From contig NC_009419.2 of the NCBI RefSeq assembly GCF_000002875.2, forward strand, positions 1,222,954 to 1,286,953: a stretch of DNA of 64,000 bases, in the 5' to 3' direction. The notes under the pieces are model-generated. The model was not told the DNA's origin and did no database searches. It saw only the letters and a list, made by a program, of their open reading frames with translations. Below, piece by piece: positions 1 through 39,132 of this stretch. Position 1 is the stretch's first letter; each line of letters starts with the position of its first letter. The DNA comes from Leishmania infantum JPCM5 (lineage: Eukaryota; Euglenozoa; Kinetoplastea; Trypanosomatida; Trypanosomatidae). The position numbers and the translations under genes are program-made.

Positions 1-1185
1 GAGGACAAGAAAACATAAGCGTGGAGTGTAAGCAGCTTCGGTGTGTTGCCCGCTTTTAGTGGCCCTTTGTTAATTGAGAGGGTGAACGTGATGAACGCGA
101 AAGCTAACGGGAGAAAAACCGAACATCACATCAGCGCTGACCTCCTCTTCAACCCCTCTCTCCAACGGTGGCAAACAAGTGTGCAGTTTGGATTGGTTGG
201 CGATCCGCGCGCCTCAGAACACACACACAAACGCTGTGCATGAAATCGTGCGCGGAAAGCTGGCCAGCAGCGTCTGCTCGGCGGTGAGAGGGTTCTCCGA
301 GCGACACAGGCAGTTGACGCAGAAGCCGTTGACACAAATCAAATGAATACGCAATAGAGAGAGGAAAGAAGGTGCAGCGCGCAGCGCACCACAACGAGGG
401 AGTCACTGATGGCACTCAACCTTAGCAGCTGCTAGTGATTTGTTTGTTACTCTTTCGCGCCGGAGGTGGCTCCTGCTCCTGCATCTTGCGCCTTGAGCAC
501 TCCCGGCATCACCTTTTCGTTGTTTGGCTCACTCTTGTGCCTATCTGGATTGAAGAAAAACACCATGCAGCCGTGCTTCCACCCATGGTTCGGTGGAACG
601 TCCTCGGTGGACAGCTGCGCTATCAGCGTCTTCACATTACACTAATCCCCAGGCGTGCAAAATCCTTCCACCGAGCTTGGCGTAGGAGACGCTGCAGTTC
701 ACGCGACCGCACGATTCCTCCTCAATCAGCCGGGGTTGCGTCTTACACAAGAACGGCGAGTGTGCGCCTCGCCTCCGACGCATAGCGGATGCGAAACAAT
801 TGCCTGTGAAAGTCCTTTAGTACGCAAATCCATGCTACGACCGACGTCTCTCACGCGAAGAATGGTGTAAACGCCCCGCGCTCCTTGAACTGTACGGGGG
901 TGCGTATTTTTTTTCCGTGTTTCTATGCGATACTTCTACCTCCCTAGTCTTCGAAGGCAGCAGTCGCCTACAGTTCACAGTGATGCTGATCCTCGAAGGG
1001 GTTGAGTTAACAAAGAGCCCAAGGCCCCACAGATCAGCACAAGCACCAGCGAGAGCACATACCCTTCATTCCTCTTTCTCTCCTTTCTTGTCACCTCCAA
1101 AATTAAGGAGGCGTGACGCCAGGGCATTCTCAAGCACAGCCTTTGACAGTATATATGTGCACACCTGCGTTGTGTTTGTTTTTCC
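1..1185. other. gene-free stretch downstream of GLO1
   Basis: No open frame here resembles a known protein, and the frames present are short and overlap on both strands. In the direction of transcription this lies beyond the GLO1 gene and the repeat copy at 1186-2420, so it is probably 3' UTR or intercistronic sequence. The gene that would follow lies outside the window. Confidence 0.5.
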
Positions 1186-1590
1186 TTGCTACCAGCGTGT
1201 TGTTCTACCACGCACACGCCAACGAATGAGCGCACACGCAACCACAGCTCACCCACCTCTGCGGCACCACGGCTACACTCTGGTCGTCTAGGGCGCACCG
1301 CCCTCTGCCGCGAAATCGAGCCGCGCGCCTCGTGCGCCAGACGGGCCTCCGCTGGGGCGCATGCCTCGATCCAAGCAGGGTCGCCTGCAGCGTCCTGCGC
1401 TCCAGGGCAGTGGCGACGGCGTCTCTGTCGCCCGCGTAACAGGGGGCGGCCACCGCGCACGCCGCACGAGCTCGAGGAGGAGGCGGGCCAGCCTCGGGGC
1501 AGGGCCCTCTGAGACCCGGCCTGCGCGCCGTGCTCCTGCGCCCAGAGCCGCTGCAAGTCGCGCTATTCCGTGATCCGGCGCGGCGACTCG
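1186..1590 (-). repeat. long direct repeat, copy 1 (SIDER/retroposon-like)
   Basis: About 405 bp that recur essentially unchanged, without indels, at 4217-4621 (constant offset 3031 bp). The sequence is very GC-rich and therefore open in several frames on both strands, but none of those frames looks like a real gene. In the sense of transcription (minus) both copies stop at the same point near 1186/4217, while copy 1 runs on upstream to about 2420. A shared 3' end with variable 5' end is typical of 5'-truncated non-LTR retroposons such as the Leishmania SIDER/DIRE families. The family assignment is inferred; the repetition is seen directly. Confidence 0.85.
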
Positions 1591-2420
1591 TCGCGTGGGA
1601 GTCTGCAGGGCTCGGCGGTGCTCTCGCCATGCTCCCGGCGTCTGCGCCTCATCAGCCCGCCCCGTCGGGATGCAGACGGGCTGTGCCGCATGCTTCGCAG
1701 GCATGCTCGTCGGGGGAGGGGGGTGATCGGCATGGGCCGCTTCGCGCCCCTCACTCGCGCTCCGCTGACCGCCGGATGCTGTGCCTGGGTGTGGTACACC
1801 GTGCCGGCTGTGCCCCACGGCGCCTGCGCGCCGTGCTCGCATTTGCGGCATCCCGCGGCCTGCGTCAAGACGGCGTTCTTGCCTGGGGGGAGGTGGAGGA
1901 GGAGGGGAGGCGTGCCTGGATGGCTTGCCCGCATGCTGCCGCGACAGTCCGGATACCGCCCTGCGCCGGCGGCGGCAGGAGACGCTCCAGCCTCCTCTCC
2001 ACCCGCACGCCCTTCACAGTCGCGGGGCTGTGGCCGGGCAGAGGAGGCTGGCGGAGGGGGCCGGGCCGGGGGCCACGCCTGTGCGCCGGCCCCGCGCAGA
2101 GCCCCCAGCCTGTCGCGCTGAGAATGCAGAGAAGGGTTGGGGCGGGGCAGCGATGGACACCAGACGGCGGAGCCCCGGTGCAGCGTGTGTGTGAGGCGTG
2201 TCGCAGCGTTGTGCAAGATGACGGCCCGCAACGTCGTCTGCTTCGAAAAGTCAGTGAATCTCACATAGCGTACGAGGCACCGCGCCGGATCAAGCGTTCT
2301 CATAGCCGACACAGGCGGAGGTGCCGGGTCTGGCGAGTGGGCGGGGTGCTGCAACGCTAGCGCAGCAGTTGAGAGCACGCCACATGCGTCCCATGCCGCC
2401 ACTGCCGGCGACCCGCCGCT
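1591..2420 (-). repeat. GC-rich extension of repeat copy 1, possible degenerate retroposon body
   Basis: This continues repeat copy 1 upstream in the transcribed sense and has no second copy in the window. It has the same extreme GC bias and is open over hundreds of codons in several frames at once (for example minus 1563-2402 and plus 1530-2360), which reflects composition rather than coding. I could not identify reverse transcriptase or endonuclease motifs with confidence. It may be the 5' part of a decayed ingi-related element (DIRE) or simply a GC-rich UTR. Confidence 0.35.
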
Positions 2421-3417
2421 GCAGGAATGCGAAGCACAGACAGGTACCGGTGCGGGCCTGTGCGAGGCGGGTCTGCCGTCGTCTCTTCAGCCCCCATGTA
2501 TGATCTTTTGCTGCGGGGTGCCTTCTGCGCGGCATCTTGTATCGTAGCGTGCCGCATCGCGTTTGTCGTTTGGTGTTCTGCTCGACCGCAGCGAGCAAAA
2601 CAAGAAAGCGGCATTTTCCCCTCGCCCGACCTCTGCCTGGTCTCACCACTTCAGAAACATCGGGGTGGCATTCGTGTCGCTCCCCGATAGCCCGTCCCCT
2701 CACGCCCCGCTTTGCTTTGCCGACAGCCGGATTGCTACGCAGCACACGCACGCGCGCATAAGCCGCAGCCCGTCCCGTGCGAAAAAGAGAACGCAGGAAA
2801 GAAAAGGTCGCTCAACAGTGCAAGAAGTTGCCTGCTGCGCCGTAGCTGATACTGCAAGAATGCTGGCGTCGGTGGTGCATGCGACGCGGTTTCCATGAGG
2901 AGAACAAAGATAAGCTGGAGAGCCACAAGAGATTGTTCGAAAGATTTAAGCAGTCCGTCTCTGGCTCCCTCCCCCCTGGTCAGCTGCGTGGAGTACTCGA
3001 GACGGTCTGCCAGGCCATCTTCGTGCGCACGCTCGGGACGGCACCAATCATCGAAAGAAGGAGGTGAGGGCAGGAAAAGGTCACGGAGAAGGAGCGAAGC
3101 CCCCTCAACCATTACCATCCACGCCACACTCCGGCCGAGATTCCTCCTCCACCTTGAGAGAAAACAGCAGTTGGCCAAACTCCTCCGCAAACGGTGGTAG
3201 AGAGGATTGTCGCGGCGACAGAAGAGAGCGCTAACACATGGCAGGTGGGTGTGCGAAGGCCAACCACATAAGGCGGAAGACATGCATTAGTGGCGCAGAA
3301 AGGTCGAGCACGGCCGACACAAGCGGCGGCAACCACCAGGCCAGAAGGGCGGAGCGAACGAATCGTGGTCAGCGAGGCAGACAGGGAGGAAGCGCAGCAA
3401 AAAAAGAATTGGGGACC
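2421..3417. other. gene-free stretch immediately downstream of GLO1
   Basis: This is the presumed 3' UTR and polyadenylation zone of GLO1. Frames are short and unrelated to known proteins. Nothing further was recognised. Confidence 0.5.
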
Positions 3418-3843
3418 TTAGGCAGTGCCCTGCTCCTTCATATCCGCCTCCGCCTTCTCCATCATCATCTTCTCGTTGAGCAGCTCAATGTAATACCCAT
3501 CCGGGTCGACCACGAATGCCATGAAGCCGCTCTCGTCTTCGTAGTCGATCGGCACGTCATGCTTGCGCATGTCAGCCACCAGCTCCTTCACGTCCTCCAC
3601 CCCGATAGCAATATGACCGTACGCTTCGTCGTGTTTGTAGGATGTGACACCGTAGTTGTACGTCAGCTCCAGAACCGTCGAGCTCATCTCGGGTGCGTAG
3701 CCAAGAAAGACGAGGGTATACTTGTCCTGCGGAACATCCCACTTCCGTAGCACCTTCATGCCCAGACGCTCCGTGTAGAACTTGATGGAGCGGTCGAGGT
3801 CGCCGACGCGAATCATGGTGTGCAGCATACGACGAGACGGCAT
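3418..3843 (-). CDS. GLO1: glyoxalase I (trypanothione-dependent lactoylglutathione lyase)
   Basis: The 141-residue protein isomerises the hemithioacetal formed by methylglyoxal and trypanothione to S-lactoyltrypanothione, the first step of methylglyoxal detoxification in the cytosol. The whole protein is one glyoxalase/VOC fold. Metal ligands are visible as His8, Glu59, His77 and Glu120, matching the nickel site described for the Leishmania enzyme. The acidic YEDE stretch at 101-104 is the loop linked to trypanothione rather than glutathione preference. The start is the ATG of MPSRRM; the frame stays open further upstream but has no other ATG. The gene sits alone between two copies of a 405-bp direct repeat (1186-1590 and 4217-4621). 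Confidence 0.97.
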   Translation of the reverse strand: MPSRRMLHTMIRVGDLDRSIKFYTERLGMKVLRKWDVPQDKYTLVFLGYAPEMSSTVLELTYNYGVTSYKHDEAYGHIAIGVEDVKELVADMRKHDVPIDYEDESGFMAFVVDPDGYYIELLNEKMMMEKAEADMKEQGTA

Positions 3844-4216
3844 TTTCCTTGCACTTGTCGAGCTCTTTTGTGAAAGAAAACACAAAAACGCAGGAGGAGA
3901 ATGAAACTTGTCACGTCGAAGTCAGCAACTGAAGCGATGTGAGGCAAGAAAGCCACAGGCAGAGGTGCGATGGGTTGGCAGTGCAAACATCAAAGATATC
4001 TGGGCGTGTGGGTAATGTCGGATTCGTCACGATGCACGCGTGAAGAAGTGGTGATTGATAGAAAGGAGGAAGGGCAGAAGAAAAAAAAAAGAAACAAAGG
4101 CCAGCAGAGTGAGGCGCATAGCAAGAGCATACGTGGGCAGCAGCAGAGAGTCCAGATAACGTCGCAAAAGAAAGCATTCATTTCGCTCCGGTAATCAGTT
4201 GAAGAGGGATCCTCGC
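3844..4216. other. GLO1 5' UTR and upstream intercistronic DNA
   Basis: Contains the polypyrimidine tract and candidate splice acceptor described separately, and no plausible gene. Confidence 0.5.
4000..4100 (-). promoter_or_regulatory. candidate trans-splice acceptor for GLO1
   Basis: Read on the minus strand, 4100-4061 is a strong polypyrimidine tract. The first AG after it is at 4001-4000, giving a 5' UTR of about 155 nt. This arrangement is what SL trans-splicing requires in trypanosomatids. The exact acceptor is inferred. Confidence 0.5.
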
Positions 4217-4621
4217 TTGCTTCCAGCGTGTTGTTCTACCACGCACACGCCAACGAATGAGCGCACACGCAACCACAGCTCACCCACCTCTGCGGCACCA
4301 CGGCTACACTCTGGTCGTCTAGGGCGCACCGCCCTCTGCCGCGAAATCGAGCCGCGCGCCTCGTGCGCCAGACGGGCCTCCGCTGGGGCGCATGCCTCGA
4401 TCCAAGCAGGGTCGCCTGCAGCGTCCTGCGCTCCAGGGCAGTGGCGACGGCGTCTCTGTCGCCCGCGTAACAGGGGGCGGCCACCGCGCACGCCGCACGA
4501 GCTCGAGGAGGAGGCGGGCCAGCCTCGGGGCAGGGCCCTCTGAGACCCGGCCTGCGCGCCGTGCTCCTGCGCCCAGAGCCGCTGCAAGTCGCGCTATTCC
4601 GTGATCTGGCGCGGTGGCTCG
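4217..4621 (-). repeat. long direct repeat, copy 2 (5'-truncated)
   Basis: Near-perfect copy of 1186-1590, in the same orientation. It lies between GLO1 and the PAF-acetylhydrolase-like gene, so it probably forms part of the 3' UTR of the latter. Similarity to copy 1 fades at about 4615-4626, and the extension seen in copy 1 (1591-2420) is absent. I saw no convincing target-site duplication. Such elements in Leishmania 3' UTRs (SIDER2) are known to affect mRNA decay; membership of that family is inferred. Confidence 0.85.
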
Positions 4622-5427
4622 TGACATGGGTCTCTCAATATGTGTTTTGACATTCAATAATAAGAAGGCGGCGCAAGCAGACGGTTGTGTATGTGCTATC
4701 TTCTCGGTGACTGTCGCGCATTCCGCCACAAGGGTTAAGGCCCACTCTTGCCCCTGGAGGAATACAGACTAAACTGGCGCACGGTGTTTCACTTGCTTAT
4801 TCTTTATCCTTGCTCTTTCGCGCTACAGTGACTTGGCCGAGAGCAGAATAGTGTGCGAATGGTCTATTGGCCCAGCGGCAGCGATAGCGGACCCACGCCA
4901 GAATTCTCCCATCTGCAACATCGGAAGAAAAAAAAAGAGAACGGTAAAAGGAACGAGCTTGACGACTTACTTTTGCTTTTTTGTTTGGCGCCATACGCCG
5001 GCAACGGTCGCGCAGCACCCCTTTGCGCTGCGCACCGATGAGCTGCATGGGTGGGTAGGGAGACATCATGGTGAAATAAGAGACGCGCGGTTAAGACAGC
5101 GGTGTGCAGTAGCGCCGCACGACAGTCCCACACACTCTTAAAACGGAAAGAAAGAGGCAAACCACCTCGGGAGTGTGTCAAGCGATCTCAAGAGAACTCG
5201 CTGTTTCTGCGTGTGTATGAGGGAGAGAGAGTTGGCAGCACTTCAATAGCCCTCGTAAAGCAGAAGTCGCATTGTTTTCATCACCCAGCTAGCTTGCCAC
5301 CGTGCGAGGACTCGCATCGCTGTTTTCGTGGACTACGGTTCTCTGCATCTCTGCCTCTCGTTGCTGGCATGGCCGGAAACAGGGAGACAGCTTATGGTGG
5401 CTCGGCGTGTGAAGTGGCAAACAACCT
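4622..5427. other. 3' region of the PAF-acetylhydrolase-like gene
   Basis: No gene-like frame. Contains purine-rich runs around 4925-4950 and 5147-5165, which read as pyrimidine tracts on the transcribed strand. Presumed 3' UTR. Confidence 0.5.
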
Positions 5428-6819
5428 TTACCCCCTCAGCGCAGCGGCGAGCGCCGAGTCGTTGAGAAGTTTGGTGTCGAGGGGCAACGGGCCGGAGACC
5501 TTTTCAATGAACCGCATTGTGTCTGCTGCGAACGCTACAATGCAGCCTCTCGGTGACGCCGTCATGTAAGCGGCGCGGTACAGCACCGGACTGAACAATG
5601 AGACGTCCGTGCACGTCAAGTGCCCAGTGCCGCGGTAGTCCTTTATCGTGTACCATGACGTCTTCATTACCTTCAGCTTGGCGTCGACTGCTGCCACAAG
5701 AGCGCTCTCCTCAGTCGAGCGCGGCTGCGCATCGACGATGGCCTTGACCTCCTCAAAGAACGCGTGCTGCTCCTTGCTCCGCACCCACTCCTCAGAGAAG
5801 ATCTGCAGCGTTGGTGTGGTGAAGTGGACCGGTTGCTTCCTGTCCGTGAGCTTGTCGTAGAACATCGTCTTCCGCAGCGGGATCATCCACGGGTCGTAGA
5901 CGACAGTGCTGGCGACGCTGCTCACGCCGCCCCTTTCACTCGCGTCTTGCGTGTCATTCAGGGCAGCCGCCAGGCATGTCGCGCCGCCAAACGAATGCCC
6001 AACGAGGTGAACGCGCGGCTCCCTTGCGATGTACGTGTCCACCGTCTCCTTGTCGTACCCGAGCGCGAGCAGTAGCTCGCCGCTGCGGATGCGCTTGATT
6101 GTGTTGAGGGTCTCTCGGATGCGAACCTCTAGCTGCGGAGCGCGATCCTCCGTGGTCCAGCCTACCTGGGTGTTCAGCGAAATGCGAATCTCCCTCCCGG
6201 CGTCGCGGCAGAAAGCAGCGCTGCCGTCCATGTGCGACAGGGCAAACACGACGGCACCGCGCGCAGCGAGGTCCATCAGCAGTGTGCTGTACAAGTGCGG
6301 AAATCCGGCAAGACCGTGGCTGAACACGATCATCGGGCGTGGGATGCCATCGTGCTGGAAGAGCGGCGCCGGCTCCGCGTCGGGTCGCATCTTCCTGCGC
6401 AGAAGGCAAAGGTCTTTCACCAGTGCGTAGGGAACTTTACTGTAGCTGGCCATGCCAACCAGGTAACCGCGCTCGCCAAACGGAATGTACTGGATTCCGC
6501 TCCGCGGCGTGCCGCTGGTGGTCGGGTAGACGATGGTGACAGGGGGCTTCATGGCACCGCGCTCACCACACACCTCACGCGTGCCCACGTTGAACTTTCC
6601 CCCGAGCGGGGAAAAGCACTGCAAGGGCTGAACGTAGAAGGCGGCGCACGTCACAAGTGAGCCCACACAGGTCATCATGAGGCACGTCTTCCAATCCACC
6701 CCCCACGCCGCCGCAAGGCATGACAGCAGCACCGACGACCCGGCCGGCAGGTAGTGAATAGACAAGATGTAGTCGAAGATCGGGTGCATTGCGCGCGATG
6801 CGTGTGTGCGCCTGTACAT
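5428..6819 (-). CDS. platelet-activating-factor acetylhydrolase-like lipase/esterase
   Basis: 463 residues with an alpha/beta-hydrolase fold of the PAF-acetylhydrolase (plasma/type II) family, which removes short or oxidised sn-2 acyl chains from phospholipids. Two hydrophobic segments near the N terminus (about 23-40 and 46-66) suggest membrane anchoring. The oxyanion-side motif FSHGLAGFP is at 166-174, the nucleophile motif GHSFGG has Ser276, the acid is probably Asp309 (VVYDPW) and the base His400 (GTGH), so a complete triad is present. The ATG at 6819 is used here; the next Met, at residue 11, is an equally plausible start. An AT dinucleotide run (6824-6838) lies directly upstream. The physiological substrate is unknown. 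Confidence 0.88.
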   Translation of the reverse strand: MYRRTHASRAMHPIFDYILSIHYLPAGSSVLLSCLAAAWGVDWKTCLMMTCVGSLVTCAAFYVQPLQCFSPLGGKFNVGTREVCGERGAMKPPVTIVYPTTSGTPRSGIQYIPFGERGYLVGMASYSKVPYALVKDLCLLRRKMRPDAEPAPLFQHDGIPRPMIVFSHGLAGFPHLYSTLLMDLAARGAVVFALSHMDGSAAFCRDAGREIRISLNTQVGWTTEDRAPQLEVRIRETLNTIKRIRSGELLLALGYDKETVDTYIAREPRVHLVGHSFGGATCLAAALNDTQDASERGGVSSVASTVVYDPWMIPLRKTMFYDKLTDRKQPVHFTTPTLQIFSEEWVRSKEQHAFFEEVKAIVDAQPRSTEESALVAAVDAKLKVMKTSWYTIKDYRGTGHLTCTDVSLFSPVLYRAAYMTASPRGCIVAFAADTMRFIEKVSGPLPLDTKLLNDSALAAALRG

Positions 6820-38959: not shown

Positions 38960-39132
38960 ACATATATACATAATATTAAATATTAAATATATATATATAT
39001 AAACATATATATATATAAACATATATATATATAAACATATATATATATAAACATATATATATATAAACATATATATATATAAACATATATATATATAAAC
39101 ATATATATATATAAACATATATATATATATAT
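38960..39132. repeat. AT-rich minisatellite, eight 16-bp units
   Basis: Eight perfect tandem copies of AAAC followed by (AT)6 begin at 39001, 39017, 39033, 39049, 39065, 39081, 39097 and 39113. The array is preceded by an AT-rich lead-in (38960-39000) and ends in a slightly longer AT run. It is the most AT-rich segment of an otherwise GC-rich window and lies in UTR sequence. Confidence 0.97.

What the first reader, a model, noticed from the sequence alone, without database searches (positions are those of the whole stretch)
1186..4621. GLO1 is the only gene between two near-identical direct repeats 3031 bp apart
The repeats at 1186-1590 and 4217-4621 align without gaps and are identical over at least 370 bp, in the same orientation. 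Homologous recombination between them would excise or duplicate a 3.03-kb unit carrying only the methylglyoxal-detoxifying gene. Leishmania is known to amplify genes as circles or tandem arrays by recombination between repeated sequences under drug or stress pressure, so GLO1 copy number may be intrinsically adjustable.
Basis: partly seen in the sequence, partly recalled or inferred. Interest (0 to 1): 0.75.

Follow-up and report, generated by a model that had tools for sequence, protein, structure and literature searches.

The report
Retroposon copies flanking Leishmania GLO1
The two near-identical repeats around the parasite's methylglyoxal-detoxifying gene are real, but they are two of a local set of old retroposon fragments, so swapping between them is possible yet ordinary for this genome.

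Summary
Observation confirmed. Window 1185-1599 and 4216-4630 match ungapped at 98.3% over 415 bp, 3,031 bp apart, with a 384-bp perfect run. GLO1 is single copy and the only ORF between them with a positive codon score. The repeat is not specific to GLO1: at least eight copies span 251 kb of chromosome 35. The left copy is the edge of a ~1.2-kb element whose best match, 99.2% over 1,218 bp, lies 38 kb away. The shared core is SIDER1-like: its profile hits 4 of 4 amastin 3' flanks fetched, in sense, while SIDER2 profiles hit 0 of 8 copies. All eight copies run sense to the nearest upstream gene. A sharp identity boundary suggests gene conversion. Leishmania recombines such repeats genome-wide at roughly 10^-6 to 10^-7 per cell (PMC4028189), so a 3.03-kb GLO1 unit is plausible but one of many. 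In L. donovani, ten of ten double-targeted clones kept the 2.2-kb SalI fragment, with ~3N DNA in the clone shown; no 3.03-kb fragment was reported. I found no evidence that GLO1 dosage is adjusted this way.

The parts
1185..1599 (-). left SIDER1-like core (L), sense on the minus strand, downstream of GLO1; 98.3% to the right copy
1600..2448 (-). extension of the left element (5' in sense), shared over 465 bp or more with six other chromosome-35 copies; at 99% over its whole length only with C35:1185894-1187109; absent from the right copy
3418..3843 (-). GLO1, trypanothione-dependent glyoxalase I, 141 aa, single copy
3844..4215 (-). GLO1 upstream region with pyrimidine-rich stretches (likely trans-splice signals, inferred), inside the 3.03-kb unit
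   Evidence: sequence printed; no RNA data
4216..4630 (-). right SIDER1-like core (R), sense on the minus strand, downstream of the PAF-AH-like gene
5428..6819 (-). platelet-activating-factor-acetylhydrolase-like gene (PF03403), upstream neighbour on the same strand

Best explanation
The repeats are two sense-oriented SIDER1-like retroposon remnants, members of a chromosome-35-local subfamily. They lie downstream of GLO1 (left copy, which has an extra ~850-bp extension) and downstream of the PAF-AH-like gene (right copy). Shown: sequence, orientation, family resemblance, copy number in this assembly. Inferred: they act mainly as 3' regulatory elements of the transcripts, as SIDER1 does in amastin mRNAs. 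Inferred: they are kept alike by gene conversion between nearby copies. Inferred: they occasionally cross over to give 3.03-kb circles, tandem duplications or deletions at the low background rate seen across the genome. This is not a dedicated GLO1 dosage switch.
For: Eight copies at 90% identity or more, all on chromosome 35 between 976 and 1,227 kb; every other hit of the 47 is 88% or less. The copy profile hits 4 of 4 amastin 3' flanks in sense (E 1.6e-42 to 2.2e-11), over the L/R-shared part. The amastin ~450-nt element is published as SIDER1 (passages of PMC2453527; PMC2323293). A chromosome-32 SIDER2 profile finds 6 of 6 published SIDER2 loci tested but 0 of 8 copies, and the copy profile finds 0 of those 6. 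Copies are sense to the nearest upstream gene in 8 of 8. L and R have 0 of 384 mismatches in 1192-1575 but 8 of 28 in the adjoining 1576-1603 (Fisher p 1.6e-10, boundary chosen after seeing the data), while each differs from the next-closest copy at 3 of 345 core sites. Rearrangement at such repeats was detected by PCR for 40 of 48 tested amplicons on L. major chromosome 23 (PMC4028189).
Against: No RNA data place either copy inside a mapped 3'UTR; the left core starts about 1.8 kb past the GLO1 stop. The 79-nt signature was not tested, no target-site duplication was found, and an A-rich 3' edge is visible at L and one other copy but not clearly at R. The four amastin flanks form two pairs of close relatives (about 77-78% alike within a pair), so they are not four independent tests. 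Conversion is inferred from one genome, and a recent segmental duplication would look similar. No junction read or circle was examined.
Confidence: 0.72

Rival explanations
1. The pair is a selected copy-number device: recombination between L and R yields a self-contained GLO1 unit that is amplified when methylglyoxal or drug stress demands it.
For: Closest of 23 qualifying repeat pairs in 247 kb. The unit holds GLO1 with its upstream region and one downstream element. Homology exceeds 200 bp.
Against: The repeat family is not tied to GLO1. Ten of ten double-targeted L. donovani clones kept the normal 2.2-kb SalI fragment, with ~3N DNA content in the clone shown; a 3.03-kb circle or tandem would give a 3.03-kb SalI fragment because the unit has one SalI site here (assumes the same sites in L. 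donovani). No published GLO1 copy-number change in the listings seen.
Confidence: 0.07
2. The near-identity arose by a recent DNA-level duplication of about 415 bp of the left element into the right site, without later conversion.
For: Among the eight copies only L and R share an extra 39-46 bp at the 3' edge. R ends in DNA with no other match.
Against: R keeps 28 further bp of diverged, seemingly homologous sequence next to the perfect run (8 of 28 mismatches), which a single recent copy would not give unless that similarity is chance. An amastin flank aligns with L and R into part of that extra edge (to 1204 and 4235), so part of the edge may be ancestral element sequence that the other copies lost.
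Confidence: 0.25
3. The perfect identity is an assembly artefact (one copy's reads used for both).
For: Another copy, C35:1147422, shows an error-like indel-rich stretch that ends abruptly, so repeats in this assembly are not all clean.
Against: Flanks of L and R differ from each other. The published L. donovani 2.2-kb SalI GLO1 fragment equals the 2,178 bp predicted here with R included; without R it would be near 1.8 kb. This supports the presence of R, not its exact sequence.
Confidence: 0.06
4. The repeats are SIDER2 elements.
For: My first guess from G+C content and size; SIDER2 subfamilies also cluster locally (PMC2424063).
Against: SIDER2 profiles recover 6 of 6 published loci tested and 7 loci in the chromosome-35 stretches held, but none of the 8 copies; the best score on the element itself was negative.
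Confidence: 0.02

Closest known systems
SIDER1 retroposon / ~450-nt amastin 3'UTR element (Leishmania)
   Same: Sequence homology over the shared core, sense orientation, G+C-rich, downstream of genes
   Different: R core is 415 bp; the seven other copies carry an extra ~465-850-bp extension in front of the core; 79-nt signature and target-site duplication not shown
SIDER2 local subfamilies (PMC2424063, PMC11520807)
   Same: Near-identical members clustered on one chromosome, mostly sense, composite structure
   Different: No detectable sequence relation
Repeat alignment groups that mediate amplification (PMC4028189)
   Same: Non-coding, 0.2-2.5 kb, at least 85% identical, direct repeats; near-identical copies seen on one chromosome only
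   Different: No rearrangement at this pair has been shown; I could not read the tables that may list it
LD1/CD1 amplification on chromosome 35 (PMC7105377, passages)
   Same: Same chromosome number, copy-number change
   Different: Reported mainly near chromosome ends; main-text passages seen do not name this locus

Membership tests
SIDER1 | Homology to the ~450-nt element of amastin 3'UTRs | tested here: met
   4 of 4 amastin 3' flanks fetched (of 58 amastin matches) hit in sense, E 1.6e-42 to 2.2e-11. That the hit region is the published element is inferred; the published sequence was not at hand
SIDER1 | 79-nt retroposon signature at the 5' end | not tested
   The signature sequence did not appear in the text I read
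SIDER1 | A-rich 3' end | tested here: inconclusive
   A-rich at L and at C35:1147422, not clearly at R
SIDER1 | Target-site duplication | tested here: inconclusive
   None of 11 bp or more at 75% for L or R; random flank pairs give one in 116 of 300. Published for 18.9% of aligned L. major SIDER2
SIDER1 | Sense orientation in 3'UTRs | tested here: inconclusive
   Orientation sense in 8 of 8 copies; UTR ends not mapped
SIDER2 | Matches a SIDER2 sequence profile | tested here: not met
   0 of 8 copies; positive controls 6 of 6
DIRE / ingi-type retroposon | Remnants of reverse transcriptase or endonuclease | tested here: inconclusive
   No such Pfam hit in six open frames of the element and one of a chromosome-13 relative (only a sub-cut-off match to an unrelated family). 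Genome matches to PF00078 (6) and PF14529 (2) do not fall on the copies, but none reached the cut-off, so these searches are weak
Recombination-competent direct repeat (RAG) | Non-coding, 200-2,500 bp, at least 85% identity, same chromosome | tested here: met
   415 bp, 98.3%
Recombination-competent direct repeat (RAG) | Rearranged junctions detectable | not testable with these tools
   No reads or DNA available

The most novel reading that the evidence does not exclude
GLO1 sits in a self-contained single-gene cassette (upstream splice region, ORF, downstream SIDER1-like element) bounded by a conversion-maintained pair of retroposon cores. Circles or tandems of this 3.03-kb unit form and are selected under aldehyde stress, while the copies also set GLO1 translation by life stage.
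Probability: 0.08. Interest if true: 0.6.

Novelty: new member of a known kind. Interest (0 to 1): 0.25.

Why it matters
It shows one metabolic gene, reported as essential in L. donovani, in a very short repeat-bounded unit: a simple place to measure recombination between retroposons where loss should be costly. It also predicts SIDER1-type control for GLO1 and its neighbour. Beyond that it is an example of a described genome-wide property.

Tried and rejected
SIDER2 identity: rejected by profiles with positive controls. DIRE / coding retroposon: no support, but the test is weak. Tandem gene duplication around GLO1 (neighbours of 460 and 463 aa): not related. Structured RNA: no Rfam match. Other genes in the unit: codon score negative for all eight other ORFs of 90 aa or more; six of the eight were searched in Pfam, alone or within a longer open frame, without a match over a cut-off, and two were not (1205-1630 minus, 2895-3200 plus). 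A protein search with the 246-aa frame gave one L. donovani hypothetical protein matching 11% of it. Target-site duplications: uninformative. GLO1 locus tags in papers: no hits; the tags were recalled and may be wrong. PMC6262978, listed with glyoxalase and copy number, names glyoxalase only in its reference list.

Full report
What is there. The two repeats are real. On the + strand, 1185-1599 and 4216-4630 align without gaps with 7 mismatches in 415 bp, 3,031 bp apart, and 384 bp (1192-1575) are identical. The outer flanks 1100-1184 and 4631-5000 have no other match in the genome. The DNA between them has only short matches elsewhere: 48 bp at 98% where the best partner ends, otherwise 70-79% over at most about 165 bp, apart from the continuation of the left copy.

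The gene. The minus-strand ORF 3418-3843 is trypanothione-dependent glyoxalase I (99% to the cluster named L. donovani Q5XQR1) and has one match in the 32.07-Mb genome. A codon-use score trained on 47 long ORFs gives GLO1 0.375 bits per codon. The eight other ORFs of at least 90 aa that overlap 1600-4216 score -0.109 to -0.390. Six of these eight were searched in Pfam without a match over a cut-off. So 'only gene between' stands, with the caveat that the lowest training ORF scores -0.206.

The organism. The window is chromosome 35 of the assembly, positions 1,222,954-1,286,953. Four published L. infantum chromosome-32 SIDER2 elements (18439r, 30662r, 39696d, 46425r; PMC2424063, section 5 read) fall at the same coordinates within about 15 bp. 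The genome is therefore an L. infantum JPCM5-type assembly (inference).

The family. Searching the whole genome with 1186-1590 gave 47 matches (40 of 99 candidates scored, so a lower bound). Eight are 90-100% identical and all lie on chromosome 35 at 976-1,227 kb. A 99-bp fragment there is 88%, and the rest are 67-82% on other chromosomes and elsewhere on 35. The segment 1591-2400 is also repeated. The left element thus spans about 1185-2448, and its best match is C35:1185894-1187109, 99.2% over 1,218 bp, 38 kb away; a longer alignment, 1,274 bp with C35:1124577, is only 89.9%. The right copy is only the core. In 1,040,000-1,286,953 there are 23 repeat pairs of 200-2,500 bp at 85% or more, all direct. 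Twenty-one are the pairs among seven copies of this family and two are SIDER2 pairs. The GLO1 pair is the closest. Six pairs span GLO1 with spacings 3,031, 41,321, 79,793, 96,424, 102,631 and 161,945 bp. The 41-kb unit would carry at least ten coding ORFs. The eighth copy, at 976 kb, is inverted.

What the repeat is. I first took it for SIDER2. A profile from four published chromosome-32 SIDER2 elements recovers 6 of 6 other published loci that I fetched (of 54 listed) and seven loci in the chromosome-35 stretches held, but none of the eight copies, also after iteration. The reverse profile, built from seven of the eight copies (the right copy was left out), finds none of those six SIDER2 loci. 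It does match 4 of 4 amastin 3' flanks, in sense, E 1.6e-42, 1.6e-39, 1.8e-21 and 2.2e-11, over the part shared by L and R. The four flanks are two pairs of close relatives, so they are not independent. In about 297 kb the same profile gave no match below E 1 apart from the eight copies and the 1,085-kb fragment. The amastin ~450-nt element is published as SIDER1 (passages of PMC2453527, and PMC2323293). That the hit region is exactly that published element is inferred from position and conservation. No coding remnant of a retroposon was found, by a weak test.

Orientation and place. Genes run + up to about 1,062 kb and - from 1,068 kb. Six copies in the minus cluster, the reversed copy at 976 kb beside a plus-strand gene, and the copy in the convergent switch region at 1,065 kb are all sense to the nearest upstream gene: 8 of 8. 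The right core begins about 0.8 kb past the PAF-AH-like stop and the left element about 1.0 kb past the GLO1 stop. Published maps put most SIDERs in 3'UTRs in sense (PMC2689281, sections 6 and 7 and passages read). No RNA evidence was available here.

History of the pair. L and R have 0 of 384 mismatches in the run but 8 of 28 in the adjoining 1576-1603 (Fisher p 1.6e-10, boundary chosen after seeing the data), and each differs from the next closest copy at 3 of 345 core sites. Among the eight copies only they share 39-46 bp at the 3' edge, though an amastin flank aligns into part of it, so it may be ancestral. I read this as exchange between the two, most simply gene conversion; a recent local duplication is the main alternative.

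Can it recombine, and does it? PMC4028189 (sections 7, 8 and 11 and passages read) reports 1,886 repeats and 3,165 potential amplicons in L. infantum, and 40 of 48 tested amplicons detected by PCR on L. major chromosome 23. It also reports deletions between direct repeats at the three loci tested, and a frequency near 10^-6 to 10^-7 per cell. By that standard the 3.03-kb event is likely to occur at background rate (inference). Against a GLO1 role: in L. donovani (PMC2728510, passages and section 6 part 1 read) GLO1 looked essential. Ten of ten double-targeted clones kept the 2.2-kb SalI fragment, and DNA content rose to ~3N in the clone shown. SalI cuts at 3505 and 5683, predicting 2,178 bp with the right repeat included, and cuts the unit once, so a circle or tandem would add 3.03 kb if the sites are the same in L. 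donovani. None was reported. PMC7105377 (passages) reports very large chromosome-35 changes near chromosome ends and does not name glyoxalase in its main text. Searches (20 of 39 papers listed; none; 15 of 64 listed) showed no report of GLO1 copy-number change; apart from PMC7105377, PMC4028189 and PMC6262978 (passages) I saw only the listings, and no supplementary files could be read.

Verdict. A real and tidy example of a known arrangement. The literature already proposes that clustered SIDERs favour local amplification (PMC4028189; PMC11520807, abstract, sections 6 and 7 and passages read).

Noticed in passing
C35:1147422-1147774 (locus L014): The first ~200 bp of this repeat copy carry many single-base changes and indels that stop abruptly, which looks like low-quality assembly.
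   Followed up: partly
C35:1065268-1066120 (locus L023): One family copy lies in a convergent strand-switch region between opposing gene clusters.
   Followed up: partly
C35:1185134-1185664 (locus L018): A SIDER2 element lies about 230 bp from the best partner of the left repeat; the window itself has no SIDER2 hit at E 1e-3.
   Followed up: no
C13:642531-644775 (locus L033): Relatives at about 68%, in two copies 95.7% alike, near the end of chromosome 13.
   Followed up: no
window 38962-39129: A 16-bp A/T-rich tandem array of about ten copies.
   Followed up: no
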